This document shows, piece by piece, positions 6,925 to 32,361 of a stretch of 64,000 nucleotides of DNA. Position 1 is the first letter of the stretch. Each line of letters starts with the position of its first letter. A program made the translations under genes and the position numbers. The notes below the pieces were generated by a model. The model searched no databases. It was given only the letters and a program-made list of their open reading frames with translations, and was not told the DNA's origin. The DNA lies in NCBI GenBank assembly GCA_012728875.1, contig JAAYEF010000021.1:33283-97282 (forward strand). The letters are read 5' to 3'. The DNA comes from Candidatus Cloacimonadota bacterium (GTDB lineage: Bacteria > Cloacimonadota > Cloacimonadia > Cloacimonadales > Cloacimonadaceae).

Positions 6925-6933
6925 GAGGCGGTC

Positions 6934-10265: not shown

Positions 10266-10293
10266 TTGACATAAAATCCGCTCCCAATATACT
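10266..10293 (+). promoter_or_regulatory. Putative sigma70 promoter for the sulfur/Dpt-like operon (TTGACA-N16-TATACT)
   Basis: TTGACA 10266-10271, TATACT 10288-10293, upstream of HTH gene 10380. Confidence 0.6.
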
Positions 10294-10379
10294 TGGTTTT
10301 AGTCGATTTTATCCTGATTTGTCATTATGATGTTTGAGGGATAACTTAATGCTATGAAGACTGTTACATAAGGAGCAAC

Positions 10380-10589
10380 ATGGAAGACAGGCTGTTATCT
10401 GTTGAAGACGTGAGACTCTATCTGGGAGTGAATAGAGATACTGTTTACAAGTGGGTAAACGAAAAAGGGTTGCCCGCGCTGAAGATTGGTCGGTTGTGGA
10501 AGTTTCGGAAAGCCGATGTGGACGAGTGGGTAAAGCAATTTGCGCACAAAAAACCTACTTATACAAAGCAAAGTAGAAACGGGCATTAG
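10380..10589 (+). CDS. Helix-turn-helix (excisionase/MerR-like) DNA-binding protein
   Basis: LLSVEDVRLYLGVNRDTVYKWVNEKGLPALKIGRLWKFRKADVDEWV. Confidence 0.85.
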   Translation: MEDRLLSVEDVRLYLGVNRDTVYKWVNEKGLPALKIGRLWKFRKADVDEWVKQFAHKKPTYTKQSRNGH

Positions 10590-10658
10590 CCTAGAATCTG
10601 ATTAATCTGCATACTTAGAAAAGATAAAATGCTCAAGGCACGTAAATAAAGGGATTTG

Positions 10659-11546
10659 ATGAAGAACAGAAAACCAAAATTCTCAGGACACCAAACTTTT
10701 GTGACACGCTACGGATGGATCGAGAAGGGATACAGATTTGTTATGGATGGCAGAATCTTTACCAGTCAGGATGCCATAGTGGAACTTGGGGTAGGCAAAA
10801 ATATGGTGGAAAGCATCCGATATTGGGTTGAGCTTACAGGAGTAATAGAATCCGGAGCGCCAAGCGAATTTGGGACGAAACTGCTGGACGAAAAGACTGG
10901 TTGGGACCCGTATCTGGAAGATAACAATTCATACTGGCTACTACACTGGAAGCTAAACACCAATCCGGAGTTCGTCCATTCAGGAATGATTTTATACTCA
11001 CATCTGCGAAAGCCTGAGTTTAATAAGAGGGATGTAGAGGATGCAGCTATTAGGCTTCTGGACATTCATGGCAAGAAGAGACCCGCAGATAGCATTTTGG
11101 CAAAAGACATTGATTGTTATCTCAGAATGTATGCCGGGACCAGAGCGTCTCCCAGAAAGCAAAAGGATGAGCAGATAGGTAGCCCCTTCCAGGAGTTAAG
11201 CTTAATCCAATCTGTTAATGACAGTGATCTCTATAGCTTCAATATTGGCAGCAAAAGCAATCTCGCTCCCGAGATCATTGGCTATGCTTTGTGGGACTAT
11301 ATGAACAGACAGAAAAAGATAGCGATCACCATTAATGAAGCATTGTATCGGGAGTACAGCCCAGGGCAGCTATTCATGCTGGACGAGAATTCCATTGTGG
11401 AAGCCGTAGAACAGCTTAGCAATGAACCACAATGGGCAGAATCTTTTGGATTCAGCGAAGCGGCGGGAGTTGCCCTCATCCACTGCAATCTGGTGGATGG
11501 GAATGATCTTTTGAATCATTATTACAAAAAGGCTGTGGAAGTATGA
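10659..11546 (+). CDS. DUF4007 family protein (predicted winged helix)
   Basis: FSGHQTFVTRYGWIEKGY...FTSQDAIVELGVGKNMVESIRYWVELTGVIE characteristic DUF4007 motif; ATG at 10659. Confidence 0.8.
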   Translation: MKNRKPKFSGHQTFVTRYGWIEKGYRFVMDGRIFTSQDAIVELGVGKNMVESIRYWVELTGVIESGAPSEFGTKLLDEKTGWDPYLEDNNSYWLLHWKLNTNPEFVHSGMILYSHLRKPEFNKRDVEDAAIRLLDIHGKKRPADSILAKDIDCYLRMYAGTRASPRKQKDEQIGSPFQELSLIQSVNDSDLYSFNIGSKSNLAPEIIGYALWDYMNRQKKIAITINEALYREYSPGQLFMLDENSIVEAVEQLSNEPQWAESFGFSEAAGVALIHCNLVDGNDLLNHYYKKAVEV

Positions 11547-14500
11547 AGACGCTGGTTAAGGAATACGTAGGTGTCGCTCCACGTTTTACAAGATCTGTAA
11601 ACCTAAACGCTGATTACAGCAGAAAGACGCAAGATTACGGGTATATTGTCACTGGCAACGTTCTTTCGTCCTTGAATCTTATCCTCTCCGGATTGCTAAA
11701 AAAGGGAGGGCAAAAATCATATTGCCTGTTTGGTTTGTATGGTTCAGGTAAATCTGCCTTTTCAGTTTACCTGGCTCAGCTTCTATCTATGGATAACGAA
11801 CAGGGGCAGAAAGCGCGAGAACTACTAAAAGGCAAAGTAATTGATCCCAAGATTGATAAGTTTCTCGCCGATAGGAATAAATCATCCTATCTCCCAGTGC
11901 TAGTAACCGGCAGACGCAGACCCATAAACCAGCTAATCATGGAGAGCGTAGTCGATGCTCTGCACCAGCTTCCAAAAAAGAAAGATACCTTAGACCTGCT
12001 CAATGAGCTACAAGGGCAATTGGAATCTGAAATCTGGCATGATTCCCAAACTGTAGTTCAAGCAATAGACAAACTGGGTATGGCAGCCAAAAAGTCAGGT
12101 CTGGCAGGTATCCTGCTGATAGTTGATGAAGCAGGGAAATCTTTTGAGTACGCACTTAGCGATCGTGAGGGCGGAGACGTTTTTATTCTTCAGGAATTAG
12201 CAGAGTATGCGGAGCGGTTGAATAAGTACTCCATGCTTTTTGTGATCACACTGCACCAGCAGATGGATAGCTATAGCGAACTGCTTTCCCGGACTAACAG
12301 AGCAGAATGGGCTAAAATACAGGAGCGTTTCGTGAATATCCGTTTTGCCGAACCTGCCAGCAGCACGATACAGATGCTGGCCGAGGCAATTAAACCTCTT
12401 AAAAGTGCCCCTACGGGCGTTAAACAGGCACTTGAGCGGGTGATTAAGGACATGCTGAAAATAGAGAATATAATCCCTCCCGGACTCAGCCATGATACCT
12501 TCGCCAAATCCGTTCATAAAGCCTGGCCAATACACCCCACCTTGCTGCTTGCCCTGCCATATATATTCAGGCGATTTGCCCAAAATGAGCGGTCGATATT
12601 TTCATATCTAGCCAGTGAAGAATACGCCGGGTTCCAAAACTCAATCAGGGAGAACGGAGTTGAAGACGATCATGGGTTTATCAGACTCAATGATATTTAC
12701 GACTACCTGCTTTCAAACTACGAGATCGGATTATCACGAAACCCACATTCCAAGAAGATGCTGGAAGCCAATGATGTAATAAATAGCAGGTCCCGGCTAA
12801 CCGATATTCAGACATGTACCTTGAAAACCATTGCGGTATTAAACTCACTGTCGGAAATCAGCCCATTAAGGGCAACCAAGGCTATGTTGGAACTCAGCCT
12901 ACCGCAGGGAGCGGATACTGAAGCCATCCTACAGAGCTTGGTTGAACAGTCATTGATCACCTTCCGCAAACTGGATAGCAGCTTCCGCATCTGGGAAGGC
13001 AGCGATGTGGACCTGGAGGAACGCCTGAATGAAGCCAGGCGACACCTACATTTTGATACGCAGTTGTTCCTGGACACCATAGACAAACACCTTAAGCAAA
13101 AGCGCATGGTAGCCCGACGCCACAGCCTTGTAGCAGGAATCATACGCTATTTCAGCACAGAATACACCGACAGTTTGGCTGATGCAAGCAGCATTTTGGA
13201 GCGAGAACTTGCGGATGGAGCTTCAGGTGTGGTTTTGGTATTGATCCCCAACGAGCAGTTTTCAATACTGATCGAAGAAATACAGGCAGTCACAAAGAAG
13301 AATCCACAACTTATAGTTGCGATCCCAAGGCAGATGGATAGCTTAAACGGAATAGTGAATGAATTAGCTTGCTTGAAGTGGGTAGAAGAGCATACAGAAG
13401 AACTTAGAGATGACCGAATTGCCCGCCGAGAACTGAATCTGAGAATATCCGCCTATGAACAGGAGCTTAGCAAGAGGGCTTACACCATAATTGATCCCAG
13501 ACCAAATCCAGTTGGAAATGAGTGCCTGTGGTTCTGGCTGGGAGAACAGAAAGAAACGCACAATCCTGTGGATGTTAGTAAACTACTATCAAAAGCATGT
13601 GACGTTCTTTTTCATAAAAGCCCGGTACTGCGCAATGAGCTAATCTCCAGAGACGATATCTCAAGTGCAGCATCTGCAGCTCGGAGAACCCTGATGGAGC
13701 TTATCCTGACAAATCATGATCAGGAAACCTTGGGCATGACAGGATACCCACCAGAAAGAAGCATTTACGAATCCATTCTCAAAGCCGCAGGCTTGCATGT
13801 GTATGATGCCAAGATGGAACGCTGGAAGTTCCAGATGCCCCCACACGGCAATTTTGTAAACCTGTATCCCGCATGGCAATTGATTGAGAAAAGCGTGTTT
13901 AATGTTAAGCTGAAAGAAATTGAATTAACAGAGCTCTACGACAAATTGAAGAAAGCCCCCTATGGCTTACCAGAGGGGATTTTCCCCATCCTGTTAACTG
14001 CTTTTTTCATGGTGCATCAGGGAGAAGTGTTTTTGTATCGCGAAGGAACTTTTTTGCCGGAACCTCAATCTGGACATTTCGATCTGCTACAGAGGCGACT
14101 GGATCTGTTTTCAATCAAAGGAGTAAAGCTGGAAGGCATCCCCAACAGAATTGTTGAAAGACTGGCTAGCAGCCTAAATACAACTCCGAAGATCGCCACA
14201 GTAGTAAGGGCTTTATATCGCAGCTTCTCGTCCTTGCCTAACCTAACTTTGAAATCAGGGAACATATCTGATCCACAAGCTTTGCAGGTAAGAGAAGCTT
14301 TTTTAAATGCGGGATCTCCTGAAAACCTACTATTCAAAGAGCTGCCTCAATGCTTTGGAATAGAGATCATCGGTTCCAAGCCTGCTTCCAATAACGATTT
14401 CGACGCCTATTTCCGGGGATTAAATAATGCATTGCAACATTTGGCGATGCACGCCCATAAGATTCTCACGACAGCTAGAGACCAGCTTCTAAATTCATGT

Positions 14501-14932
14501 GGTCTAAACACGGGTGAAGAAGGCTGGATTGAACTGGAGGATCGTTGCAGAATACTGGCAGATCGAATTAACCACAACGAAGTGACCCCCTTTATAAACA
14601 GTGTTTTAAACGGAGCCAAGGAAAATCACGATCCCACACCTGCATTATCGAATGTGAGCAAAAGGTCATTTGAACAATGGTTGGATGCCGATATAGAGAG
14701 GTTTGAGGGGTTGGCAAAAGGAATGGGAAACCTGTTTAAGCACTATTGGTCTAACTTTGGAGCGATTTCCTATAGGGAAGCAATAGGGAAGCCAGCACAA
14801 GTTTCGGAATTTCGTAGAGAAATCCAAACCCAGATCGAAAAAATACAGGACAAACTGCCAATAGAAGAAATCAGGACTATAATCTTGGAACTGTTGGCAG
14901 AACTTCAAAAAGAAGAGGCGTCAAATGGCTAA
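11543..14932 (+). CDS. Large P-loop ATPase (1129 aa), module 1
   Basis: Walker A GLYGSGKSAFSVYLAQLL, Walker B LLIVDEAGKSFEYA; ATGA overlap with upstream gene. Confidence 0.8.
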   Translation: MKTLVKEYVGVAPRFTRSVNLNADYSRKTQDYGYIVTGNVLSSLNLILSGLLKKGGQKSYCLFGLYGSGKSAFSVYLAQLLSMDNEQGQKARELLKGKVIDPKIDKFLADRNKSSYLPVLVTGRRRPINQLIMESVVDALHQLPKKKDTLDLLNELQGQLESEIWHDSQTVVQAIDKLGMAAKKSGLAGILLIVDEAGKSFEYALSDREGGDVFILQELAEYAERLNKYSMLFVITLHQQMDSYSELLSRTNRAEWAKIQERFVNIRFAEPASSTIQMLAEAIKPLKSAPTGVKQALERVIKDMLKIENIIPPGLSHDTFAKSVHKAWPIHPTLLLALPYIFRRFAQNERSIFSYLASEEYAGFQNSIRENGVEDDHGFIRLNDIYDYLLSNYEIGLSRNPHSKKMLEANDVINSRSRLTDIQTCTLKTIAVLNSLSEISPLRATKAMLELSLPQGADTEAILQSLVEQSLITFRKLDSSFRIWEGSDVDLEERLNEARRHLHFDTQLFLDTIDKHLKQKRMVARRHSLVAGIIRYFSTEYTDSLADASSILERELADGASGVVLVLIPNEQFSILIEEIQAVTKKNPQLIVAIPRQMDSLNGIVNELACLKWVEEHTEELRDDRIARRELNLRISAYEQELSKRAYTIIDPRPNPVGNECLWFWLGEQKETHNPVDVSKLLSKACDVLFHKSPVLRNELISRDDISSAASAARRTLMELILTNHDQETLGMTGYPPERSIYESILKAAGLHVYDAKMERWKFQMPPHGNFVNLYPAWQLIEKSVFNVKLKEIELTELYDKLKKAPYGLPEGIFPILLTAFFMVHQGEVFLYREGTFLPEPQSGHFDLLQRRLDLFSIKGVKLEGIPNRIVERLASSLNTTPKIATVVRALYRSFSSLPNLTLKSGNISDPQALQVREAFLNAGSPENLLFKELPQCFGIEIIGSKPASNNDFDAYFRGLNNALQHLAMHAHKILTTARDQLLNSCGLNTGEEGWIELEDRCRILADRINHNEVTPFINSVLNGAKENHDPTPALSNVSKRSFEQWLDADIERFEGLAKGMGNLFKHYWSNFGAISYREAIGKPAQVSEFRREIQTQIEKIQDKLPIEEIRTIILELLAELQKEEASNG

Positions 14933-15776
14933 AATAGAAGACCAACAGAGGGAGGCAGGAATGGAAAACAAAACCAGACATATACTGGCTCTGTCCGGTG
15001 GAAAAGACAGCTCCGCACTTGCAATATATATGCGCAGCAAAGATATAGACATGGAGTATGTGTTTTGTGATACTGAGAAAGAACTAGACGAAACATATGA
15101 GTATATTAACAAACTTGAGGCGTACCTTGGAAAAAAAATACAGTTTTTAAAGTATGCTGATGGATATGGATTTGATGATATATTGGATATCAAGAATGGT
15201 TTCTTGCCTTCCCCTGATTCAAGATGGTGCACCGATTATTTAAAGCTTAAGCCTTACGAAAGCTTCATTGGAGATGACGAGGTTATCAGTTATGTAGGCA
15301 TTCGAGCGGATGAAGCCCAAAGGAAGGGATACATCTCAACCAAGCCAAATATAAAAACTGTGTTTCCTTTTATTGAAGACAACATTGGCAAAGAAGAGGT
15401 GTTTAGGATACTGCAGGAATCAGGCTTGGGGGTACCCAGCTATTACAATTGGAGATCACGTTCAGGTTGCTATTTTTGTTTTTTCCAACAGAAAAGAGAG
15501 TGGATAGGGCTCTACGAAAACCATCCAGATTTGTTTGAGAAGGCGGCCGCCTATGAAAAGATTGGCGACAATCCCAGAGATATCTTTACATGGAATCAAG
15601 GTGAAAGCCTATATGACCTCATTAAGCCCCAACGGATGGCACAGATAAAAACAGAATATGCCAAACGGCTAGAGAGAAATAAAAATAGATTTCTTGCCCA
15701 GCAAAGACTAATAGATGTATTTGAAGATAACGAGGATGATGGTTCAGACAGAGCATGTCTGATCTGTCATTTATAG
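14925..15776 (+). CDS. PAPS reductase/DndC-like PP-loop protein (compact, 283 aa)
   Basis: ALSGGKDSSALAIYM PP-loop; cysteines RWCTDYLK, SGCYFCFF, terminal CLICHL. Confidence 0.85.
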   Translation: MAKIEDQQREAGMENKTRHILALSGGKDSSALAIYMRSKDIDMEYVFCDTEKELDETYEYINKLEAYLGKKIQFLKYADGYGFDDILDIKNGFLPSPDSRWCTDYLKLKPYESFIGDDEVISYVGIRADEAQRKGYISTKPNIKTVFPFIEDNIGKEEVFRILQESGLGVPSYYNWRSRSGCYFCFFQQKREWIGLYENHPDLFEKAAAYEKIGDNPRDIFTWNQGESLYDLIKPQRMAQIKTEYAKRLERNKNRFLAQQRLIDVFEDNEDDGSDRACLICHL

Positions 15777-15779
15777 ATC

Positions 15780-16916
15780 ATGATTTATTTGGATTATAGT
15801 GCTACTACACCATGTGCGCCGCAAGTTATGGCTGCCATGATACCCTATTTCCAAGACCGCTTTGGCAACCCCAGCAGCTCTCACGCATATGGGCGTGAGG
15901 CAAGAGCAGCGGTGGAAAAGGCAAGAGAACAGTTTGCCGAGTTTATTGGCTGTAGCCCCCATGAGATAATCTTCACTTCAGGTGCCACAGAAAGCAACAA
16001 TCTGATCTTTCTATCACTGTTGTTGGATACAAATGAGAAGAGGAGAAAGATAGCTGTTTCTGAAATTGAACATAAATCGGTGCTCTTGCCCGCAAAAAAC
16101 CTAGCCAAGAGAGGCTTTGAACTTATCCTTCTTCCTGTAACCGCCAATGGAGTAGTGGATATCGATGCCGCCCGCGACTTGATAACGGAGGATACAGCCC
16201 TGGTTTCGGTACACACCGCCAATAACGAGATCGGAACTATTCAACCCATAAACGAACTGGCTGAAATCGCCCACAGAGTTGGCGCAAAGTTTCATACCGA
16301 TGCCGCCCAAGCACTGGGGAAAATGCCATTCAATCTACAGAATCTGGATAGCGACCTGGCTTCTTTCAGCTCACATAAAATATATGGACCTAAGGGTATC
16401 GGAGCTCTTTACATTAGAGGGGGAAACAGTAATTGGCCTTGGGAATATCCACTTTTTGGCGGTGGTCAGGAATCCGGTATCAGACCAGGGACACACAATG
16501 TCCCTGCCATTGTTGGTTTCGGTGAAGCTAGCCATATTATTAGCCATAACCGTGACCATTTCCTCAGTAGGCTGTTAAGCTATACACAATCTTTCGAGGA
16601 TATGCTTACTACTAAGAGCAGTAACTACATAATACACTGTCAGAATTCCAGTAGAATCTTTGGTATATCGAGTATTTACCTAGATTGTCCAAAGGCCGAC
16701 CTAATATTGGAGTCTATCGCAGATATTGCTGTGAGCAAATCTTCTGCATGCAACTCAAGTTCGTTGCAAAAATCTCATGTTATTCAAGCTATCAGTTCAG
16801 ACCCTACAATGTCAGATAGAACAATTCGAGTATCGTTTGGTTTCGATTCTGATGAATCCAGTGTCTCAAAATTAGTCAACACATTAGTCAATGCAATTCA
16901 GGTAATTAGCAAATGA
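15780..16916 (+). CDS. Cysteine desulfurase (DndA/IscS-like)
   Basis: MIYLDYSATTPCAPQV, FTSGATESNN, SSHKIYGPKGIGALYI (PLP Lys), QESGIRPGTHNV, SSACNSSS catalytic Cys. Confidence 0.93.
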   Translation: MIYLDYSATTPCAPQVMAAMIPYFQDRFGNPSSSHAYGREARAAVEKAREQFAEFIGCSPHEIIFTSGATESNNLIFLSLLLDTNEKRRKIAVSEIEHKSVLLPAKNLAKRGFELILLPVTANGVVDIDAARDLITEDTALVSVHTANNEIGTIQPINELAEIAHRVGAKFHTDAAQALGKMPFNLQNLDSDLASFSSHKIYGPKGIGALYIRGGNSNWPWEYPLFGGGQESGIRPGTHNVPAIVGFGEASHIISHNRDHFLSRLLSYTQSFEDMLTTKSSNYIIHCQNSSRIFGISSIYLDCPKADLILESIADIAVSKSSACNSSSLQKSHVIQAISSDPTMSDRTIRVSFGFDSDESSVSKLVNTLVNAIQVISK

Positions 16917-20795: not shown

Positions 20796-23700
20796 AATAC
20801 ATAGCACGTTCATTCAACGATTATGTTTCGGGAAGGATAGAATCCCAGCTTCCTTCCATGGAACTAGGGCAGAAAATCATTTTTATGGTGGATAGCATTC
20901 CAGAAGATCTGACCATCGCTACTGCAGATTTGATCAGCAGCTCATTACTGGAAAATAGCGACGTAAATGTGCTGGTCAAGATTGCCAAGACTCTTACCGA
21001 TCAATGGTCTGAAGAGGGTATCATAAAGGCAAAGGATGCCCAATGGCTTACCCTGCTGGATAATCTTGCATATTATCGAAATGAACCCATGCCTGCCGAT
21101 AAATACAATGTGATCATTCTCTATGGAGCTGATGTGGTAACCGATTCCGGCAGCCTGGCTGATTTTAATAGCTGTAATCTCAAGATGATTTGGGAAACAG
21201 AGATGATGCGTGGTTTCGGTAAGTGGGTTTCAGACATACTAAGCTCAAGTGGTATTGACCTGTATAATAAAGATGACCTTCAGATCTTCGACAACATCCT
21301 CTATCCGATTATTGAACAAGGTAGAGCCGATCTTATCTCGCTAAGTAAGTGGTTGGAAAGCTTGGATCTATCCTACTGTGATAGTGTGCCGATGGTATTG
21401 AACTTGGTTTTAACGAAGTTGAGGGTTTTTCAATTACCAAATTTCACCAGTTTCCCATATGCACGTAAAAACAAGAAATTTAAACCCTATGTTTATAAAG
21501 CGATTGAATTCTTTAGCTACACGATGTTTATCGAGGAAAGCCAAAAGAAGAAGGCAATAAAAGCAATTGATGGAATCCTCGAGGTTATTGAGGCGGGAGA
21601 AGAGGGTTGGGAAAACCTGGATGACGAGCAAATAAGAGGAGCATATGGCAGTGGTATTGATTTCTTGTCTGGGATAAAAAACTATATACAGACCGAGGAC
21701 CGAGATGACAAGAGTAAGCTTTTTGAAAGTGACTTTGTGTTCATTTTGGACAAGGTCTTGAAGTTCAAGAAAAAGCAGGAAAAGAAGAAAACCAGCGTAA
21801 AACGCATGGAGGGAAGTCCCGTAGAAATAGTGCTTACGGCTTTGTGGGATAGTCTCTACGAGCTCTCCAAATCCAAAGACTATGGTAGCATAGAAAACCT
21901 CAGTAAGATAGAAATAACTGGAGATTTATTCAAACATGACATGGAGTGGGATGATAATGATGGAGATTATTCCGTCTTGGACGTGGCAGAGATAGCAAGA
22001 GATTTTTTGCACAGGTTCATCGGTGGGCTTGACTGCTTTATTATGCAGCACACTTGCTTGAAGAACAAAGACGGCGTTGAAGTAGAAGTTCAATGCAAAC
22101 TTGATAATGATGAAATCAAGTTCCGTTATAACAGAACAGCTACTGCAGAGTTAGCATTCAGCATCAATCTCTATGTGCAAAATGAAGAAAACCCCCAAGA
22201 AAGGAAATACGCTTGGAAATTGCCATCCAGCCATAGCTATCGCCTGGCTACTGAATTGATCGGTATGGCTGCCGACGAACTGGATCGACCAGACCATGCT
22301 TTGGTATTACCACTATTCCATCTTCCCTATTATGACGAGATTCTAAAGACTTCATCTAATGATGAGTTGCGGAGAATATTCCTACACAGCTTGAGGGATT
22401 CAGTGTCAGAAGGTTCTTTTTTGAGAAATCTATTGTCGGGCAATTGGATAAAACACGAAGATAAGCTGCTGCCTCATTACAAGAATCTCGCAGAAAAGTA
22501 TCACCTATTCATCAAGGCTGCCCAAAAAGATGGTTTAATAACAGCATTGACTGACACTTCCATATGGGACATCTTAAGGCAACAATATGAAGTGGTTTTA
22601 GACATGATCAGCACACAGAGTGAGTTACTGAAATCACCCATGGCTGGCATGATCCTGAAAGCGTTTATGGTGGTAAGAGAAAGGCAGAAAGATGAAAGCG
22701 ATGCATGGTATGCCGAGCTTTATGAAAAATCAGGCATTATTACCGTGCTTCATCCATCCCTGCTCGAGATGCTGCAATCCCAGATGGTCTATCAGTGTTC
22801 CTGTTTTAACTATGCAGTGACCGTTGAAATAGAGAAAAACAAGAGGAAAGATGCTTTTAAAAAGCATATATGGCAATCGTATCTTGACCTTTCCCATATC
22901 CGTACCCCTGTAAACTGTATTTTGACCGATGATGGGTTGAACCTCAATACAAACGTTGTGGGACATGAGCTTATCCACAAAGTAGGTGATCCCATAGATG
23001 GAGAGGCTTTTAAATCGACAAAACTGATGCTGGGAATGTCTGACGAAAGTGATGATGAAATAAATGATGTAAGTGATGCAGACATGTTTTTAGAAACTCG
23101 GGAATCGAAGCTGCTGAACAATCTGCTATTGGACTACTTTAGGCTGCATCCACACGCGAGGGACGGCTTGAGCATAGCTGTTTATAGAAATCAGGACATT
23201 CAACCAATCATAGCAGCAATACACGCGTATTTGATTAAGCTTTCCAATGTTAAAGACCCGAACTACTACGTTATTCGAAATGAACGCAGTAGGCCCTACC
23301 AAATCAGTGTAAGTATTTTTACAGATTCAGCCGATGCGAGCAGTATAGATAGGTGGATAGAACAATGGAGCGAAAGATGGGAAGCTGCGGAAACGGAAAG
23401 TAAGTTTCAAGTTTATCGAAACTGCAGATTTTCTATTTCGCACAGACTGATCAACACTGCCGACCAAAACTCGTTTTTGAGAATGATCAACGATAACTTT
23501 AGCACTGATGTGACTGTACTGTATGACATTATTGGCTCAGGGAATATAGCTGATAAGTTTCAATCGGTTGATCCCATGGATATCAGAACCCATTCCCTAA
23601 AGTATCCTATCTTAGAAAAAGCTGTTGCTACGATTGACAACCCCTCAGATGAATTCAAGCGGTATAGGATTATCAGTAACAGACAGTTCAGTATCAGCTC

Positions 23701-26215
23701 AAGATTGGCTGGATGCATGCACGCCTTGAAAAGTGGAACTACCCCAAAAGGCACCGTGGTGATAGGCACTGGAGATTTGAGGCCATGGATGGATGTGATT
23801 GGGGCTCTCCACAGCAAGTCTGAATGGGTAATCTGCATTGACCCAAGCGTGGATGACCGTTTAATCCGAGATTCGGGCAAAAAAAGCGATTTGCAGAGAG
23901 AAATAATTGGATTCGGCTCAGGAGTGGGCATTTCAGGCGAAGAAAACTACACCATATCGACAGAGCATTTTTCCTTAAATGACATTGAGATAAGACTGAG
24001 AGCTTCCATCAAGCAATTGATAGCAGACAAAAATTGGACGGAGGAAGACTATCAGAATGTAGCTAAAGGGACAATGAGGGTTGCCCAGGAATTGTCCGGA
24101 TTGTCTCTGGTGAGAGCGACCGGAGCGGCAGACCAGTATATCAGAGACTTTATGGCCTATGCCCTCACTCGTAAAATTATTGGAAAAGACGATACTATGT
24201 TATGCAATACTCTGGTGACTCTTGATGCATACAGACACTGGTTTGATTTTGCAGAGAGCGGAGTAAGACCAGACCTGTTGTGGTTAAAAGCAAGCCTGGA
24301 GAAGAAAAATCGTTTGAAACTGAACCTGCACCTAATCGAGTGCAAGATGGGCAACAGGTCGGAAGATCTGCTGATCAAAGCCAAACAACAGATCAATAAC
24401 GGACTGAGTATCCTGGTTAAGGCTTTTAAACCCAATTTCCAAGAGATACAAAAGCTCGATGATGATAAGCCAGACCGCCGTTATTGGTGGATGCAATTGC
24501 ACCGTCTGATAGCTGCAAAGGCAAAGATCGATACATATCAAGAAGAGCGAGTAATCTCAGCCTTGGAAAAACTCGCTGAGGGGGATTACGAGATAAGCTG
24601 GGACGCTTCAGTGATGGCCTTCTGGATTGACGATGAGGCCGAATCGATCAAGAAAACTGGTTCATGGAATAATCCTGAGACAAGTTCTGGAAAAGCAAAT
24701 GTGTTTTCAATAGGCAGGAATTATATCAAAGCGCTTGCCCAATCTACAGATGAGAACTCGTCGATCATAACTGAATCTACAGATGGACCTCTTTCCGATG
24801 AAGAAAATATCATGCAGAAAATTGAAGATATTGACCTGCCGCCAAGTCTGGATGATGAAGACTATCAACCTGGCGATACAATGACAGAATGGGACGATGA
24901 TGAGCCTGAAGATGATGAGGGTGATGCAAGTCCTAATTGGGATGATGACACAATTCCAGATTTCCAGCAAGAAGGGACAGCAAATGACCAACCTTCTATA
25001 GATCAAGTAATAGAAGGTGATGAAGAGCCCTTGGATAAGGCTGATGACGTTATACAAACAATTCCCGAGAGGATTCTCCTCGGAAAGACTAGCGGTGGAA
25101 AAGAAGTCTTTTGGGAATTCGGTCATGATAGCCTGGCCAATAGGCATGTGGTGATCTTTGGCACATCAGGCATGGGGAAAACATACGCCATACAGTGCAT
25201 CTTGTGTGAGCTGGCAAGAAAAAACCAAAACAGCCTGGTAATAGATTACACGGATGGGTTCGTTCCTAACAACATAGAGCCGGCAGCAAAGCCGATTATT
25301 ACAAGTGAAGGTCAGACATTTATATACAATGAGCCTCTCCCAATAAATCCATTCAAAGCTCAAGTCAGCGAACAGGATGGCATGAAATTCAAGGATACGT
25401 CTATCACAATTTCTAAGCGCGTATCTTCCATATTTAAAAATGTTTATGATTTAGGCACACAGCAACTCCCGTTCACAATCGAAGTCATCCAAACCGGTAT
25501 TGAAAGATATGGAGATGAATTCAATCTAGATAAAATGCTCGAGATGTTCTATGAATACCTGGATGATGCGCTTTACACAAAGAACACTGTGCAGACCACA
25601 ATCACGAAGCTGAAGCCATTTATTACCAGCAAACCATTTTTGGTGGACAAAAGCGAAATAGGATGGAATGAGCTGTTTGCCGATGTAGAGAATAGAAGTA
25701 GAGTCTTTCAGTTTCACAAAGTCGACAAACACTCCTCGAGAGCAATTATCGAATTTGTGTTGTGGGATCTATACAACTACGTTAGCAGTTATGGTAGTAA
25801 ACACCTACCAAAGGTCATAGTATTGGATGAGGTTCAGAATTTGGATTTAGGACCAGACGCCCCAGTAGCAAAATACCTTACAGAGGGGAGAAAGCATGGC
25901 CTTGCACTTATAACTGCAACACAAACAGTAAGAGGAGTTGGTGGAGTCTCTGACGCTCAGGTAAGCAGACTCTTTCAGGCTGAGATGAAGCTGTTCTTTA
26001 AACCGACAGAAAATGAAATGAAAGAGCATGCTCAGTTGCTAAACAACGCTATCAGCGATATTCCAGTGAAAGAATGGACGAATCGGTTAGCTAAGCTTCA
26101 AAAGGGCGAGTGCTGGGTTCTGGGAAGACATCTTGATGAACTCTCTGGAGAACTGAGATTGAAGGCACAGAAAATACGAATTTCTTCACTGGAAGAGAGA
26201 GGATTTCATGGCTAA
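20792..26215 (+). CDS. dptH: DptH-like protein with C-terminal HerA/FtsK-type ATPase (1807 aa)
   Basis: FGTSGMGKTYAIQCILCELARK Walker A, KVIVLDEVQNLDLG Walker B, TATQTVRGVGG; very large N-terminal part typical of DptH. Confidence 0.75.
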   Translation: MKYIARSFNDYVSGRIESQLPSMELGQKIIFMVDSIPEDLTIATADLISSSLLENSDVNVLVKIAKTLTDQWSEEGIIKAKDAQWLTLLDNLAYYRNEPMPADKYNVIILYGADVVTDSGSLADFNSCNLKMIWETEMMRGFGKWVSDILSSSGIDLYNKDDLQIFDNILYPIIEQGRADLISLSKWLESLDLSYCDSVPMVLNLVLTKLRVFQLPNFTSFPYARKNKKFKPYVYKAIEFFSYTMFIEESQKKKAIKAIDGILEVIEAGEEGWENLDDEQIRGAYGSGIDFLSGIKNYIQTEDRDDKSKLFESDFVFILDKVLKFKKKQEKKKTSVKRMEGSPVEIVLTALWDSLYELSKSKDYGSIENLSKIEITGDLFKHDMEWDDNDGDYSVLDVAEIARDFLHRFIGGLDCFIMQHTCLKNKDGVEVEVQCKLDNDEIKFRYNRTATAELAFSINLYVQNEENPQERKYAWKLPSSHSYRLATELIGMAADELDRPDHALVLPLFHLPYYDEILKTSSNDELRRIFLHSLRDSVSEGSFLRNLLSGNWIKHEDKLLPHYKNLAEKYHLFIKAAQKDGLITALTDTSIWDILRQQYEVVLDMISTQSELLKSPMAGMILKAFMVVRERQKDESDAWYAELYEKSGIITVLHPSLLEMLQSQMVYQCSCFNYAVTVEIEKNKRKDAFKKHIWQSYLDLSHIRTPVNCILTDDGLNLNTNVVGHELIHKVGDPIDGEAFKSTKLMLGMSDESDDEINDVSDADMFLETRESKLLNNLLLDYFRLHPHARDGLSIAVYRNQDIQPIIAAIHAYLIKLSNVKDPNYYVIRNERSRPYQISVSIFTDSADASSIDRWIEQWSERWEAAETESKFQVYRNCRFSISHRLINTADQNSFLRMINDNFSTDVTVLYDIIGSGNIADKFQSVDPMDIRTHSLKYPILEKAVATIDNPSDEFKRYRIISNRQFSISSRLAGCMHALKSGTTPKGTVVIGTGDLRPWMDVIGALHSKSEWVICIDPSVDDRLIRDSGKKSDLQREIIGFGSGVGISGEENYTISTEHFSLNDIEIRLRASIKQLIADKNWTEEDYQNVAKGTMRVAQELSGLSLVRATGAADQYIRDFMAYALTRKIIGKDDTMLCNTLVTLDAYRHWFDFAESGVRPDLLWLKASLEKKNRLKLNLHLIECKMGNRSEDLLIKAKQQINNGLSILVKAFKPNFQEIQKLDDDKPDRRYWWMQLHRLIAAKAKIDTYQEERVISALEKLAEGDYEISWDASVMAFWIDDEAESIKKTGSWNNPETSSGKANVFSIGRNYIKALAQSTDENSSIITESTDGPLSDEENIMQKIEDIDLPPSLDDEDYQPGDTMTEWDDDEPEDDEGDASPNWDDDTIPDFQQEGTANDQPSIDQVIEGDEEPLDKADDVIQTIPERILLGKTSGGKEVFWEFGHDSLANRHVVIFGTSGMGKTYAIQCILCELARKNQNSLVIDYTDGFVPNNIEPAAKPIITSEGQTFIYNEPLPINPFKAQVSEQDGMKFKDTSITISKRVSSIFKNVYDLGTQQLPFTIEVIQTGIERYGDEFNLDKMLEMFYEYLDDALYTKNTVQTTITKLKPFITSKPFLVDKSEIGWNELFADVENRSRVFQFHKVDKHSSRAIIEFVLWDLYNYVSSYGSKHLPKVIVLDEVQNLDLGPDAPVAKYLTEGRKHGLALITATQTVRGVGGVSDAQVSRLFQAEMKLFFKPTENEMKEHAQLLNNAISDIPVKEWTNRLAKLQKGECWVLGRHLDELSGELRLKAQKIRISSLEERGFHG

Positions 26216-27053
26216 AAAAGAAATCAACACACGCCTCCCCAGAAACTTCCATCGCACGTTCAAACCAGAGCGGCAATATATAAGTGCAATTCTGAAGTTT
26301 TCTGCAGAGGGAAGATCGGGAAATGCTCAAACAATATCAGAAAAAACAGGCATACCTACTGGTGAATCATCAGGGAAAGTGCTTCCTACAATTGATTATT
26401 GCCAAGGAATGGGCTTGATCTCTGTAAACAAGGATAAGGGTTTACTGATCAAGCCAGAATTGACTGATCTGGGAAGAGTCATATTAGTGGAAGATCCCTA
26501 TTTGAAGGCTGAGATAAGCCAATGGTTATGCCATCTGAATCTGTGCAACAAAACGACAGGAGCTGATGTTTGGTACCATGTATTCTGGTCTGCTTACCAC
26601 AGCCTTGGTGACAGATTTACAAGAAACAACCTGGAAGCTATGCTAGAGTCCCAATATGGCAGCAGTAATCGCAGTTTGATTGGACCTCTGCTTGGTATGT
26701 ATGAAGATGATGCCTCTTTCAGAGTGTGTGGAGCCCTACAGGATGACGGCAAGCTTATTACTCGCAACCAAGCTCCAATAAAAGATGATCTTGCCAGGGG
26801 CTATGGGGCATGGGTGATTGGCTCGATGGAGCGCTTTTTCCCGAAGCAGAAACAAGTTTCGACTTCAGAATTAGAGCAAAAAACGGGATGGCTTACGATT
26901 TGTAGATGGTTGGGCAAAGGAATGTCCGATGTGCTTGATCAGATGGAACGGAAAGGAATATTAAAGGTAGACAGGCACATGAACCCTTGGATTCTGAGCC
27001 CATTGAAGAGCGCAAGAGAAGCATACAAGCAAATGTTTGATGACATGATATAG
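26208..27053 (+). CDS. DUF4007-like winged-helix protein, module 2
   Basis: LTDLGRVILVEDPYLKAEISQWLCHLNL aligns with FGTKLLDEKTGWDPYLEDNNSYWLLHWKL of the 10659 protein; also partners a giant ATPase. Confidence 0.5.
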   Translation: MAKKEINTRLPRNFHRTFKPERQYISAILKFSAEGRSGNAQTISEKTGIPTGESSGKVLPTIDYCQGMGLISVNKDKGLLIKPELTDLGRVILVEDPYLKAEISQWLCHLNLCNKTTGADVWYHVFWSAYHSLGDRFTRNNLEAMLESQYGSSNRSLIGPLLGMYEDDASFRVCGALQDDGKLITRNQAPIKDDLARGYGAWVIGSMERFFPKQKQVSTSELEQKTGWLTICRWLGKGMSDVLDQMERKGILKVDRHMNPWILSPLKSAREAYKQMFDDMI

Positions 27054-27068
27054 AAACCGGAGGAAACA

Positions 27069-30000
27069 ATGATTTTAAAGGACATCGTAAGGTTTAGAGG
27101 AGATAAGCTCTTTAATGGGGCTGTTAACATTGATTGGTACATAACTGACTCTGTTAAATCCAAATTGGCGTCGGAAGCGTTTGTGTTTCATGGACCTGCC
27201 TATCATGGGGTATCTCCGGATGAAGTGGGATATAACCACGGGCACAAGCTGATTGATACTGCGAGTTTTACCAAAACAATAGTTAGAAGGTCATACGGTC
27301 TTGAAGATGTGCCGTTTACCTTGGCAATTGCAGGATATGGAACGGGTAAATCCCACCTTGGTGTTACATTAGCTGAACTATTGAGTGCTCCTGCAGATAA
27401 GGCTTCACAAGCTATTCTGATAAACCTTCGTTCGGCTGATGATCAGATAGGTCAAGAAATTGGGATGATGATCGATGACATCGAAAAGCCATGTTTGGTC
27501 ATAGCTCTCAATGGCCTCACGAAATTTGACTTTATTCATGGGTTATCCGGCCAGATCATCCAAGTTCTACGTAGGGACGGGCATGACGTTAAACCGATCG
27601 AAGATTTGAGACCCAGGTTCAAACAAGCAATCAAGATGCTGAATTGGATAACAAGCCCCCCAATGCTGGAAGAACTTGCGGAGATTTGCGGAGGTGCTAA
27701 CCTGGCAGATATCACAGCATTGCTGGAGAAACAAGATGAAACCACCTATATCAATGTAAACAAGTTCTTGGGCAAGCATGACATGCAGATTAGGAATTTG
27801 CAAGGCGAATCCATACAAGAACTGATTGGTAGGACTGTAGAAGTATATTGTGGTGAGGGAAAGCCATATCAGTCCCTTGTCATTCTGTTTGATGAGTTTG
27901 GCAAATATATGGAATTTGCCTCAACTAGGAGCCATTTGGCTGGGAGTGGAGTGCTTCAAGAGCTGTTTGAGACCATACAAACCTACTCACCTCAGGTTAG
28001 CTTTGTGGGTTTTATCCAATTTGAACTGAACGCTTATCTTCAACGCATGGCTACCGAGCATAAAAATGAGATGCAGAGATACATAACCAGGTATCAAACG
28101 GCTGATAAGCTTTATCTTTCAACCAACCTTGAAACTCTAATTGCTAACCTGATAGAGAAGAAGAATCCACAATACCTAAATCAAATCTTTGAGACAGAAT
28201 CCTCTTTCCAAACCTCAATTCAAGAGCTACAAAAGATTAATGAATGGTTTCCCAGTTCAAGGCATATTCAGGTGTGGAGCGATCCAAAATTATATCATAA
28301 CATAGTGAGCAAAGGATCTTGGCCCTTATCGGCATACAGTATCTGGCTTTTATATTACCTTTCTGCAGTTGGGAGCCACTTACAGGAGAGATCCGCCCTC
28401 GCTTTATTGATAGAAGCTTTTAACCAGTTTGAATCGAGCCAAATATCAGATGACAAGGACTGGAGGATTGCCGCTGTAGATATGATGAGCGATTCTTTTA
28501 TCCATGAGCTGATTAGTTCTGAAGAGTCTGGAACGCAGGGAACGATCATGCAAGCATATCAGACTGTTATGTATAAGTATGCAAGTAGATACTCAGTCAA
28601 TCAGATAAGGATACTAAAAGCAATTGTCCTTAGTTCCAAGCTTGGCCTTGTAGCGATAAACCGTGCAGACGCAGTGGAAGCTCTTGTTGCTTTAACCAAT
28701 ATGGATACCTCGGTGCTATCAGAAGAACTTCAGATGCTGTTTGATGAATACAATGCTATCGAATGGGATGAAGCATATAAGAGCTTTGATATTCTTTCAG
28801 ATGCACTTCCCAGAAGTCAATTCATAAACCACATCCGCAGGCTTTACGGCAGTTATGATGAAAACTCCAAATCTCAGCTATTCGTCTCAATGATTAAGGA
28901 AAGCTGTGAACTTATTAAAGACATCCAAAGTGACTTTGCAGAGGAGAATAAGATCACTACCCCTGAGTGGGGCTTCCAAGCAAAAGTAGCAAATCTGGAC
29001 ACATTACCACAACAGATCATATTTGAGACAGAAAGATGGTCTAAGGCGGAGAGTATTGATGACCCAAGAGGATCAATTCTTTATGTGTATCTGGGAGAGA
29101 GTGTGGATGTAGATAGTGTGTGTAAAGAAGCCCACAAACTCATAAAATCAGCAGCAGAAACATTTAAAGTAAAAGCAGTTCCAATATTACTGGTTTTTCT
29201 ATACGATTCTGAAGGGAAACTGGGACAATACCTTTCTGAATTGTCTATACTGGATGCCCTATCCAAAGAAGACTTGGCGAAATATGGCAACCTAGTTGAT
29301 TCTCATAGAATAAAAATTGAACGCTCCCTGCAAGAAATAGTTGAAGCCCTGTTAAGAGAGAAAAGATATCTCTCACTTGGTGGCAAGCAACTGGAAGGAA
29401 TGAGATTGAGTAGGGCTACAACTGTGTTATTTAAACAAATCTATACCCATCCAGTTTCATTTCCATTCGATGGATTTTCCACTTCAAAAGGGAACGCAGC
29501 AGATACATGCGCGATGCTAACCCGGGAGTTGATGCACTCGACTTTAGATTATAGCGCTGTAATGGCAAAGCCTGTTAAAGATAAAAACAGGGCAAATAGT
29601 GTCCTCAAAGATGCGTGGGGGATTTTCTCTGCAAATGGGAAAATCAACAGAAGACCCAATAATAGCATTTTGAAGAATCTAACGCTTAAATGGGATGAAG
29701 CTCTACAAGAACGAATGCTTTCGCTGCGTGAGATTTATGACACAATGATCAAACCTCCTTATGGGGCAAATCAAGACTCAGCAGGATTATTCTTGGCTGC
29801 ATACATCTCTCCACGTAGTAATACACTGAATGTGCTTAAGAATCATCAGTATATAACTATTAATGGATGGGCAGATGACAATCTTATCAGATCAAAACAC
29901 TTCAATCCAGCTATTTTAGAGGATGCCTATCTGGTTCTTCGATCTGATGACACCTCTGAATGGGAAGCATTACTGGATGAATGGGAACAGGCAGAGAGTC

Positions 30001-31331
30001 ACATTGCACGAGTTGAATGTATGGAGCGATCAGGTGTACTGAAGGAGAAGCTTCCAGTCCCTCCAGAGCTTTTCTATCGAGAGCAGAGACTGACTGTTCA
30101 AGCGAAAGAATCGGAAAAGAGAATTGACGAAATGGAAGAAGCTAAAGATGCTGCGATTATGAGGATCAAGAATCATACAGAGAAAGGTAATGTTAATCCA
30201 ATATCTTGGGGGTGCTCTTCTCTAAAACAATTAATAGCTAAGTTAGAGTCTGAAAAACCTCTGTGGATAGATGAGCAGATCGATGACATGAGGCCGGTCC
30301 TAGCTGAAGGGCGGCAGACAATAATACAGGTTTTTCCAGATTGGCTTGTCCAAATAAGCCCAAAATCAGATTCACCAGATCATGTGGGGGAATTCAAGCA
30401 TCTGATGCTGAGTAAGGTAAAGCTAAACCTGGAAGATATTGGGCTTGATAATGAAGCAAGCAACCTTGATACTCGTGTAAGGTCATTGATTCGCAGGGTT
30501 GAAGATGTGACGGAGGCCCGAAGATTGATCAGTGAAGTTGATACTTGGATTCGAACAAACCGAAGCGTTATAAGTACCAGCAGACTTAAAGATATCAGGG
30601 TGACAAAAGAGCTTGCAAAAGCCTTTGCCAATAAGCTAAAGGGCATGTTTCAAAGGATAAACCTTAACGAACTACAAGTTGTAAGAAAGGGGCTTAAAGA
30701 CTTCTACGATTCACTAATCACAGCCGAAGGTGAAATCACGAAAAGAGCGGATAAAGTCTGGACTTCCAAGATTTCTAGTGAAGACTCAATTGATGTGATG
30801 TTAGAGGAACTTGATTCTCTAATCAGAGCTTACGATGGGCTGGAATCGGACCTGGAAGATTTTCATATTGTCAAAAAGGCATTACACCTATTTAAACGGT
30901 CATACGGTCGATTAAGCGATTTGAACCTAACTTGGAAATCTTTTAATGCACTCTCTGCAGATGTTGAACAAGAGACAATCTCCAAGCTTGCCGAGGATGA
31001 ATTACCTTGGCTTCCGGAAGATGTGATTAAAAACATAGTTAAAACCATATCTGATATTCGCAAGCAGCTCAGCAAGGAGTGGACAGATGAGATATTGGAA
31101 CTGGGAAAAGATATTCCCGAGATGGATGTAGCATCGGCTAACCAGCTCCAGAATAAGCTGTCCAGTCCGCCAGCTTATGTAGCTGAAGCCCACCTGAAGA
31201 AGCTTGAGAAGATAAGAACCACCCTTAATACAAGGCTGAGTGAGATCAAGATTGAGTGGTTGGTAGAGAAGTTTAAAGAACTGTCGGATAAGGACAGGAA
31301 GAAATTTCTTACATTTATTGAGTCTGTATAA
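27069..31331 (+). CDS. Large P-loop ATPase with C-terminal helical region (1420 aa), module 2
   Basis: Walker A AGYGTGKSHLGVTLAELL, Walker B VILFDEFGKYMEFA; long helical/coiled C-terminus. Confidence 0.8.
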   Translation: MILKDIVRFRGDKLFNGAVNIDWYITDSVKSKLASEAFVFHGPAYHGVSPDEVGYNHGHKLIDTASFTKTIVRRSYGLEDVPFTLAIAGYGTGKSHLGVTLAELLSAPADKASQAILINLRSADDQIGQEIGMMIDDIEKPCLVIALNGLTKFDFIHGLSGQIIQVLRRDGHDVKPIEDLRPRFKQAIKMLNWITSPPMLEELAEICGGANLADITALLEKQDETTYINVNKFLGKHDMQIRNLQGESIQELIGRTVEVYCGEGKPYQSLVILFDEFGKYMEFASTRSHLAGSGVLQELFETIQTYSPQVSFVGFIQFELNAYLQRMATEHKNEMQRYITRYQTADKLYLSTNLETLIANLIEKKNPQYLNQIFETESSFQTSIQELQKINEWFPSSRHIQVWSDPKLYHNIVSKGSWPLSAYSIWLLYYLSAVGSHLQERSALALLIEAFNQFESSQISDDKDWRIAAVDMMSDSFIHELISSEESGTQGTIMQAYQTVMYKYASRYSVNQIRILKAIVLSSKLGLVAINRADAVEALVALTNMDTSVLSEELQMLFDEYNAIEWDEAYKSFDILSDALPRSQFINHIRRLYGSYDENSKSQLFVSMIKESCELIKDIQSDFAEENKITTPEWGFQAKVANLDTLPQQIIFETERWSKAESIDDPRGSILYVYLGESVDVDSVCKEAHKLIKSAAETFKVKAVPILLVFLYDSEGKLGQYLSELSILDALSKEDLAKYGNLVDSHRIKIERSLQEIVEALLREKRYLSLGGKQLEGMRLSRATTVLFKQIYTHPVSFPFDGFSTSKGNAADTCAMLTRELMHSTLDYSAVMAKPVKDKNRANSVLKDAWGIFSANGKINRRPNNSILKNLTLKWDEALQERMLSLREIYDTMIKPPYGANQDSAGLFLAAYISPRSNTLNVLKNHQYITINGWADDNLIRSKHFNPAILEDAYLVLRSDDTSEWEALLDEWEQAESHIARVECMERSGVLKEKLPVPPELFYREQRLTVQAKESEKRIDEMEEAKDAAIMRIKNHTEKGNVNPISWGCSSLKQLIAKLESEKPLWIDEQIDDMRPVLAEGRQTIIQVFPDWLVQISPKSDSPDHVGEFKHLMLSKVKLNLEDIGLDNEASNLDTRVRSLIRRVEDVTEARRLISEVDTWIRTNRSVISTSRLKDIRVTKELAKAFANKLKGMFQRINLNELQVVRKGLKDFYDSLITAEGEITKRADKVWTSKISSEDSIDVMLEELDSLIRAYDGLESDLEDFHIVKKALHLFKRSYGRLSDLNLTWKSFNALSADVEQETISKLAEDELPWLPEDVIKNIVKTISDIRKQLSKEWTDEILELGKDIPEMDVASANQLQNKLSSPPAYVAEAHLKKLEKIRTTLNTRLSEIKIEWLVEKFKELSDKDRKKFLTFIESV

Positions 31332-31350
31332 TGTATTAAGGAGTTATAAA

Positions 31351-32280
31351 ATGGGTTATCAAGATCATGGCAAAAGAATAAGAGAGTTCTTTAACCACAA
31401 AGCAAATGTCTTACAAAATCAGTATGAAATCATTGAGAAACTTTTACCTGCTCCCCGTGGTCAAAAAGGAGCCGCACATAAAGCAGAGGAAGGAAGATAC
31501 GTAGAAAGCCTTATTAGATCGTTCCTCAATTCTGTACTTCCCAAAGAATTGAGAGCCTTTTCAGGGTTTATTCTTCGCCCGAGCACAAAAACAGGGAAAA
31601 GTGATATAGGCCGTAAGATACGTAACGAAGCAGATGAGCATTCTAGTCAATTAGATATAATTGTGTATGATGTTGCTCATTATCCGGTCTATGAATCATT
31701 TGAAGAGTTTGCGATTTTACCACCAGAGGGGGTTGTTGCAATTTTTTCTGTAAAGAAAAGACTATACCTCGACGACATCAACAATGAACTTATAGCACTA
31801 AATAAAGCCATTAACTTATGTAGAGGTTGTTCGGGAGTGCGTCATAATTATACTTCAGAAACAAAGCATTTGATCCAAAGAGCACCAATCACAGGTATTA
31901 TAGCATTCACATTATCACGAAAATCGAATCTTGTAAGTATAGCCAATGGCGTTAATAAAAGGATTGCAAAGAATTATTCTTCTCAACTATACCCCTTTGA
32001 TATGTTAGTTAACCAAATCAACGTTCTTGATACATTATGTGTGTTTAAAACAAGACCTAAGCCAGATACCGAGGATGTGAGGGAGGCAAAGTATATCTAT
32101 TATAATTATAATCAGCAACTGCATAATGGGCTACAGTTCTTATTAACAGGTATACTGAGTTCGTATTATGATCCTACGAGAAGCAATATTTACCGGCCAG
32201 GATATACATGTTTTGAACCATCGAGAAAACACGACGGAGAATTTAATCCAATCAATGTTTTGGGGCTAAGATGCAAATGA
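31351..32280 (+). CDS. DUF6602-like protein, predicted nuclease fold
   Basis: SQLDIIVYDVAHYPVY...PPEGVVAIFSVKKRLYLDDI (D...(x)VK-like core); ATG at 31351 with AAGGAG. Confidence 0.55.
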   Translation: MGYQDHGKRIREFFNHKANVLQNQYEIIEKLLPAPRGQKGAAHKAEEGRYVESLIRSFLNSVLPKELRAFSGFILRPSTKTGKSDIGRKIRNEADEHSSQLDIIVYDVAHYPVYESFEEFAILPPEGVVAIFSVKKRLYLDDINNELIALNKAINLCRGCSGVRHNYTSETKHLIQRAPITGIIAFTLSRKSNLVSIANGVNKRIAKNYSSQLYPFDMLVNQINVLDTLCVFKTRPKPDTEDVREAKYIYYNYNQQLHNGLQFLLTGILSSYYDPTRSNIYRPGYTCFEPSRKHDGEFNPINVLGLRCK

Positions 32281-32361
32281 TGGATTCTCCAATCAACAAG
32301 TTGTTAACACATAAAAGACGTTTTATTGTATCAAACAATTATCGTATGCGGCGGGCTGACC

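What the first reader, a model, noticed from the sequence alone, without database searches (positions are those of the whole stretch)
10266..32280. Dnd/Dpt-like sulfur defence operon built without recognisable DndB, DndD or DndE
Seen: one co-directional operon with mostly overlapping genes: DUF4007 protein, 1129-aa ATPase, PP-loop PAPS-reductase-like protein, cysteine desulfurase, DptF/DptG/DptH-like genes, DUF4007-like protein, 1420-aa ATPase and DUF6602-like protein. Known: canonical phosphorothioation uses DndA/IscS with DndCDE, with DptFGH (DndFGH) as restriction partner. Inference: DUF4007 + giant ATPase replaces DndD/DndE as DNA-recognition and energy module, giving a variant sulfur-modification/restriction system. 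The gaps are too small to hide a DndE gene.
Basis: partly seen in the sequence, partly recalled or inferred. Interest (0 to 1): 0.92.

Follow-up and report, generated by a model that had tools for sequence, protein, structure and literature searches.

The report
Sulfur-tag DNA defence with built-in reader
This is a nine-gene bacterial immune operon that marks the cell's own DNA with sulfur and probably destroys DNA lacking the mark; it belongs to the known Ssp family, but in a widespread variant, not found described, that adds a sulfur-reading domain and a second DNA-recognition motor pair to the destroying half.

Summary
The operon is real, but it is Ssp, not a depleted Dnd system. Genes 1-4 are SspB-SspC-SspD-SspA, so the missing DndB/D/E is expected and already known. 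The new part is the restriction half. SspF-G-H is followed by a second, divergent SspB/SspC pair (B2-C2). A genome scan found 54 C2 loci under more than ten phylum-level names. Thirty-three show all five genes F-G-H-B2-C2; 52 have H directly before B2. Twenty-seven have the SspBCD(A) writer adjacent. Five alphaproteobacterial SspFGH loci examined lack B2-C2. B2-C2 is closest to the second DUF4007/ATPase pair of type-4 BREX, where it sits with PglZ-BrxL. SspF starts with a phosphorothioate sulfur-binding domain (PDB 8h0l; profile E 2e-38; putative pocket H, K, P invariant in 22 of 22 domains); it is present in 21 of 27 loci and absent from the five alphaproteobacterial SspFs. SspH joins an SspH-like middle to a DndH-type nuclease-HerA half. 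DUF6602 is a local extra. Most likely: SspABCD marks self DNA; B2-C2 scans DNA and loads F-G-H; the SspF domain vetoes cleavage of sulfur-marked DNA. Mechanism inferred. Verdict: new variant of a known kind.

The parts
10656..11546 (+). SspB (DUF4007), DNA-recognition/nickase subunit of the writer
   Evidence: PADLOC SspB 3.6e-76; Pfam DUF4007 8.8e-73
11543..14932 (+). SspC, 1129-aa AAA+ ATPase of the writer
   Evidence: PADLOC SspC 3e-275
14925..15776 (+). SspD, PAPS-reductase-like ATP pyrophosphatase
   Evidence: PADLOC SspD 2.3e-109; Pfam PAPS_reduct 7e-11
15780..16916 (+). SspA, cysteine desulfurase
   Evidence: PADLOC SspA 7.6e-127 (DndA 6e-126)
16913..19195 (+). SspF, 760 aa: N-terminal sulfur-binding domain plus SspF P-loop core
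   Evidence: PADLOC SspF over aa 175-723, 3.4e-32; Walker A GHAGDGKT
16979..17323 (+). Sulfur-binding domain (SspF aa 23-137), putative pocket residues H28, K29, P79
   Evidence: PDB 8h0l SBDHga1 5.6e-14, profile 2.1e-38; top 10 Foldseek hits are PT-DNA sulfur-binding domains or ScoMcrA; H/K/P in 22 of 22 domains
19128..20795 (+). SspG
   Evidence: PADLOC SspG 8.7e-14; profile match to canonical SspG 4e-25
20792..26215 (+). SspH, 1807 aa: SspH-like middle, PD-(D/E)XK nuclease (D1161, E1183, K1185) and HerA/FtsK ATPase (Walker A aa 1457-1464)
26208..27053 (+). SspB2, second divergent DUF4007 protein with the SspB fold
   Evidence: Pfam DUF4007 5.1e-9; AlphaFold2 pLDDT 91.5, only significant PDB matches are SspB 6juf/6lb9
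27069..31331 (+). SspC2, second divergent 1420-aa AAA+ ATPase (Walker A AGYGTGKS, Walker B LVILFDE)
   Evidence: PADLOC SspC 4.6e-17; closest outside relative is the BrxC-like ATPase of type-4 BREX (6e-62, 1e-59); Walker A in 42 of 42
31318..32280 (+). DUF6602 / NucC-like PD-(D/E)XK protein, accessory, not conserved with the system
   Evidence: not found in any of the 54 related loci

Best explanation
A phosphorothioate restriction-modification system of the Ssp family with an expanded restriction half. Writer (known biochemistry, by homology): SspA draws sulfur from cysteine, SspD activates it, SspB-SspC choose and open the site, and sulfur is placed in the host DNA backbone. Restriction (inferred): SspB2, an SspB-fold DNA binder, and SspC2, an ORC/Cdc6-like AAA+ ATPase, scan DNA and load or license the SspF-G-H complex; SspH then translocates DNA with its HerA motor and cuts with its PD-(D/E)XK nuclease. 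SspF reads sulfur directly with its N-terminal sulfur-binding domain; engagement of that domain by marked self DNA switches the complex off, unmarked phage DNA does not. Shown here: homologies, invariant motifs, obligate linkage, and that the writer is adjacent wherever the module is intact and enough contig is held.
For: Family assignment. Fixed F-G-H-B2-C2 array: 54 C2 loci, 33 with all five genes visible, 52 with H directly before B2, the other two on contigs too short. Writer adjacent in 27 loci: before F in 25, after C2 in L037 and L057. Writer gene found in at least 35 of 50 genomes, many of them MAGs cut at contig ends. Two long contigs without a writer (L035, L062) carry broken modules: H in pieces in both, F and G missing in L035, as expected if unrestrained FGH is toxic (shown for SspFGH in PMC8092258). 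B2-C2 belongs to the restriction side: it stays with FGH when the writer moves to the other end, and its distances track F/G/H (mean r 0.71) better than SspB/C/D (0.46). Reader. Relation to type-4 BREX. Nuclease and motor motifs of SspH.
Against: Six of 27 loci lack a detectable sulfur-binding domain, so it is not indispensable. The writer and restriction blocks evolve only loosely together (r 0.33-0.55), and the excess of FGH over the writer in tracking B2-C2 is positive in 474 of 500 bootstraps, with an interval that includes zero. Canonical SspFGH works with three genes and no B2-C2 (PMC8092258), so B2-C2 could be regulatory rather than essential. No experiment exists; sulfur in the DNA of this lineage is not shown.
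Confidence: 0.6

Rival explanations
1. B2-C2 is a second writer head: it shares SspD and SspA and places sulfur at a second DNA motif, so the locus makes two PT patterns.
For: B2 and C2 are homologues of SspB and SspC, and SspD-SspA could serve both. Tandem duplicates of the DndD-DndE pair are documented in Dnd systems (PMC10853773).
Against: B2-C2 stays with FGH when the writer lies elsewhere (L037, L057); its distances track FGH better than the writer; it is absent beside the five alphaproteobacterial writers examined; its closest relatives sit beside PglZ-BrxL in type-4 BREX.
Confidence: 0.17
2. PT activates rather than vetoes: the SspF sulfur-binding domain works like SspE, switching the nuclease on when host DNA carries sulfur.
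For: Other sulfur-binding domains are fused to nucleases that attack PT-DNA (ScoMcrA, SprMcrA; PMC6224610), and SspE is PT-activated (PMC8092258).
Against: Canonical SspFGH is toxic without PT and tamed by PT (PMC8092258). In both writer-less loci found the module is broken, which fits a veto. An activated nuclease would need another way to spare self DNA.
Confidence: 0.2
3. An ordinary SspABCD-SspFGH locus; B2-C2, the sulfur-binding domain and DUF6602 are incidental neighbours without a joint function.
For: Defence genes cluster in islands; DUF6602 is such a neighbour, and PD-T4-4 and a UG13a reverse transcriptase flank the operon.
Against: Applies to DUF6602 only. B2-C2 recurs directly after SspH in 52 of 54 loci under many phylum-level names, and the sulfur-binding domain is in the same polypeptide as SspF in 19 of 27 loci and a separate gene just upstream of SspF in two more.
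Confidence: 0.05

Closest known systems
SspABCD-SspFGH (Vibrio anguillarum FF-93; PMC8092258)
   Same: Same writer set; SspF and SspG families (profile 2.5e-26 and 4e-25) and the middle of SspH (1.6e-18).
   Different: Here SspF usually carries a sulfur-binding domain; SspH ends in a DndH-type nuclease-HerA half; the module has five genes, with B2-C2. Five alphaproteobacterial SspFGH loci lack B2-C2 and have SspF of 589-614 aa without the domain.
DndABCDE-DndFGH (DptFGH)
   Same: C-terminal 950 columns of SspH match DndH at 4.6e-86. NERD plus tandem-kinase N-terminal extensions of some SspF relatives match those reported for DndF (PMC10853773).
   Different: No DndB/C/D/E; SspG does not match DptG, and SspF matches DptF only around the P-loop (8e-6). 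Two Dnd/Dpt plasmid loci have no B2-C2.
Type-4 BREX (Thermomicrobium roseum, Pseudanabaena galeata)
   Same: SspB-SspC-SspD writer plus a second DUF4007/ATPase pair; C2 profile hits its ATPase at 6e-62 and 1e-59, B2 profile its DUF4007 at 5e-18 and 5e-25.
   Different: BREX-4 continues with PglZ and BrxL; here SspF-G-H precede the pair, and no PglZ or BrxL homologue was found in the 54 loci.
PT-dependent restriction endonucleases (ScoMcrA, SprMcrA, SBDHga)
   Same: Sulfur-binding domain with conserved H, K/R and P (PMC6224610).
   Different: Here fused to SspF inside a system that makes PT, not to an HNH nuclease that attacks PT-DNA.

Membership tests
Ssp phosphorothioation (SspABCD) | SspB, SspC, SspD and a cysteine desulfurase in one cluster | tested here: met
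   E 3.6e-76, 3e-275, 2.3e-109, 7.6e-127; genes contiguous
Ssp phosphorothioation (SspABCD) | Single-strand PT in host DNA, e.g. 5'-CpsCA | not testable with these tools
   Needs LC-MS/MS or PT sequencing
SspFGH restriction | SspF, SspG and SspH homologues next to sspBCD | tested here: met
   F and G clear; H matches SspH over its middle part (1.6e-18) only
SspFGH restriction | Self-sufficient three-gene restriction module (as in FF-93) | tested here: not met
   By gene content only: two further genes, B2-C2, follow SspH in 52 of 54 related loci; absent in five alphaproteobacterial SspFGH loci. Whether F-G-H alone would work here was not tested
Dnd / DptFGH | DndC, DndD, DndE and DptF/DptG | tested here: not met
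   No DndD/E/B hits; SspD only weakly like DndC (6e-7); G does not match DptG
Type-4 BREX | PglZ and BrxL next to the PT writer and BrxC-like ATPase | tested here: not met
   All ten operon proteins scanned, no PglZ or BrxL; none in 54 related loci by single-query phmmer
Sulfur-binding domain | Sequence and fold of the PT-DNA sulfur-binding domain with conserved H, K/R, P pocket residues | tested here: met
   residue mapping to ScoMcrA H116/R117/P165 is by motif, not by superposition
Sulfur-binding domain | Binds PT-DNA in preference to normal DNA | not testable with these tools
   Needs EMSA or fluorescence polarization

The most novel reading that the evidence does not exclude
B2-C2 is a portable 'find DNA and load the effector' unit shared by two immune systems: coupled to PglZ-BrxL it makes type-4 BREX, coupled to SspF-G-H it makes this system, both fed by the same sulfur writer. 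Together with the sulfur-binding domain on SspF, this supplies the missing self-reader of PT-based restriction.
Probability: 0.4. Interest if true: 0.82.

Novelty: new variant of a known kind. Interest (0 to 1): 0.7.

Why it matters
How the restriction half of phosphorothioate systems tells sulfur-marked DNA from unmarked DNA is open; the SspFGH authors invoke unknown extra information (PMC8092258). A conserved sulfur-binding domain fused to SspF is a concrete, mutable candidate reader. The same paper found no known restriction partner for most sspBCD clusters and suggested more diversified partners; this five-gene module is one, under more than ten phylum-level names and mainly in anaerobes. 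The module also links three families treated apart: SspFGH, DndFGH (through SspH) and type-4 BREX (through B2-C2).

Tried and rejected
DUF6602 as a conserved effector: rejected; no homologue in 54 related loci, a different gene follows C2 in other Cloacimonadota, and the DUF6602 relative on a Rhizobium plasmid has no Ssp neighbours. SspH N-terminus as a PglZ stand-in (suggested by a remark on PglZ and DndH in PMC12839542): profile comparison gave nothing; untested by structure. PglZ/BrxL missed nearby: none found with single-query searches. B2-C2 as a plain tandem duplicate of SspB-C: its profiles match type-4 BREX better. Structure search by sequence for SspB2 found no PDB relative; the predicted fold did. 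Rfam: nothing in the window. Papers on DUF6602: none held. The library holds no bioRxiv collection and lacks most subscription papers, so a description elsewhere cannot be excluded. Whether SspB2 keeps the SspB nickase site was not tested; its catalytic residues were not in the papers read. The catalytic completeness of the DUF6602 protein is unclear (an SVK rather than ExK motif).

Full report
1. What is there. The window lies on a 97-kb contig of a 2.17-Mb genome. The phylum is read from its close relative G038, whose record is named Candidatus Cloacimonadota. Ten + strand genes run from 10656 to 32280. Library searches name them SspB, SspC, SspD, SspA, SspF, SspG, SspH, a second DUF4007 protein (B2), a second large ATPase (C2) and a DUF6602/NucC-like protein. 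Its puzzle, Dnd without DndB/D/E, dissolves because the writer is Ssp. That SspB and SspC stand in for DndE and DndD is published (PMC10853773).

2. The restriction half is a five-gene module. In the window's own phylum C2 occurs in 4 of 125 genomes, and in G038 the order SspB-C-D-A-F-G-H-B2-C2 is fully conserved. A scan of one genome per species found 54 C2 loci, from records named Desulfobacterota lineages, Bacillota, Chloroflexi, Acidobacteria, Verrucomicrobia, Lentisphaerae, Bacteroidota, Chlorobiaceae, Spirochaeta, Armatimonadetes, Atribacteria, Sumerlaeota and Cloacimonadota. Thirty-three loci show all of F-G-H-B2-C2; 52 have H directly before B2, and the other two lie on contigs too short to tell. 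The scan used two short peptide patterns, so 54 is a lower bound.

3. Writer linkage. SspD is found in 31 of the 50 genomes searched and SspC in 4 of the other 19; most of the rest are metagenome bins with the locus at a contig end. In the window, G038 and 23 fetched loci the writer precedes F (two of them cut by a contig end); in L037 and L057 it follows C2. On two long contigs without a writer the module is damaged: L035 keeps only H pieces, B2 and C2, with a separate PT-type sulfur-binding HNH endonuclease nearby; L062 has H split. This matches the reported toxicity of SspFGH without PT (PMC8092258), though n is two.

4. Control: SspFGH without B2-C2. Five alphaproteobacterial plasmid loci (Agrobacterium, Aminobacter, Sinorhizobium, Falsirhodobacter, Sphingomonas) carry the writer and FGH, but profiles of B2 and C2 find only the writer's own SspB and SspC there, and their SspF proteins are 589-614 aa without the N-terminal domain. 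Two Dnd/Dpt plasmid loci have neither.

5. The sulfur reader. SspF aa 23-137 match the crystal structure 8h0l, the sulfur-binding domain of Hga with phosphorothioated DNA (5.6e-14 alone; 2.1e-38 with a 16-member profile). A predicted model (pLDDT 77.6 overall, low after residue 150) finds 8h0l first, then SprMcrA and ScoMcrA; its ten best hits are all of this kind. All 16 members match NCBI's PT-DNA restriction endonuclease model, below its cut-off. The residues corresponding by motif to ScoMcrA H116, R117 (lysine in most homologues) and P165 are H, K and P in 22 of 22 domains; the position of Y164 varies, as the paper says it does with target sequence. The domain is present in 21 of 27 loci with a readable SspF start: fused in 19, a separate gene just upstream of SspF in two. 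In several loci SspF is about 1500 aa: sulfur-binding domain, NERD nuclease, two kinase domains, core. PMC10853773 reported wHTH-NERD-kinase fusions on DndF and equates the sulfur-binding domain with its wHTH, so this fusion was partly seen before, without being tied to an Ssp writer or to PT reading.

6. B2-C2. The B2 model (pLDDT 91.5) has only SspB as a significant structural match. C2 keeps Walker A in 42 of 42 and a strict Walker B pattern in 36. By profile, C2 is far closer to the second ATPase of type-4 BREX (6e-62) than to the SspC proteins of the same loci (1e-7 to 1e-9), and B2 likewise to the second DUF4007 protein. Over 15 loci with all genes, distance matrices form blocks: B-C-D (r 0.79-0.93), F-G-H (0.91-0.94), B2-C2 (0.95). 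B2-C2 goes with FGH at 0.71 and with the writer at 0.46; the difference holds in every jackknife and in 474 of 500 bootstraps, with an interval touching zero. The parts of PMC12839542 read here do not mention a second pair, nor its pairing with FGH.

7. SspH. Its middle matches canonical SspH (1.6e-18), and its last ~950 columns match DndH (4.6e-86). The motif RPD-x21-ECK (D1161, E1183, K1185) and a HerA Walker A are conserved in 32 of 35 by strict pattern. [quoted passage not shown] this SspH bridges them.

8. Mechanism. See the best explanation. Known by homology: sulfur chemistry, nicking by SspB, nuclease and translocase folds. Inferred: B2-C2 as loader, the SspF domain as veto. I give the mechanism 0.6 and the family and module assignment about 0.95.

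9. Setting. In at least three congeners (G018, G022, G026) the genes at 1093-2040 and 34502-36031 are neighbours, within roughly 75-170 bp of aligned ends; in the window about 32 kb separates them. The insert has lower G+C in most of its length and also holds a Mu-like/TniA transposase, a TniB-like ATPase, a PD-T4-4/PDC-M47 pair and a UG13a reverse transcriptase.

10. Verdict.

Noticed in passing
window 2041-34501: The defence island is an insertion of about 32 kb: in congeners G018, G022 and G026 the flanking genes are adjacent.
   Followed up: partly
window 4303-8143: Mu-like/TniA-type transposase, TniB-like ATPase and a small third protein beside the island; no match to them in the 20 kb upstream of the related G038 island that was compared.
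   Followed up: partly
window 8197-10148 (- strand): Two-gene PD-T4-4 / PDC-M47 defence pair (2e-159 for the ATPase), also next to the Ssp operon in G038.
   Followed up: no
window 32326-34167: Defence reverse transcriptase of class UG13a (5e-199), 45 bp after the DUF6602 gene, possibly co-transcribed.
   Followed up: no
L102, L103, L108, L111, L112, L114, L129: SspF relatives of about 1500 aa with N-terminal additions; NERD nuclease and two kinase domains confirmed by Pfam in L112, and read by eye in five of the others.
   Followed up: partly
L134 15296-16231 (reverse-complement coordinates): Beside the decayed writer-less module of Desulfobacter latus lies a stand-alone sulfur-binding-domain plus HNH protein, a likely PT-dependent restriction enzyme that would be incompatible with a PT writer.
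   Followed up: no
L016, L035, L044 after SspC2: A methyltransferase-domain gene follows or overlaps the end of SspC2 in three loci; the gene after C2 is variable.
   Followed up: no
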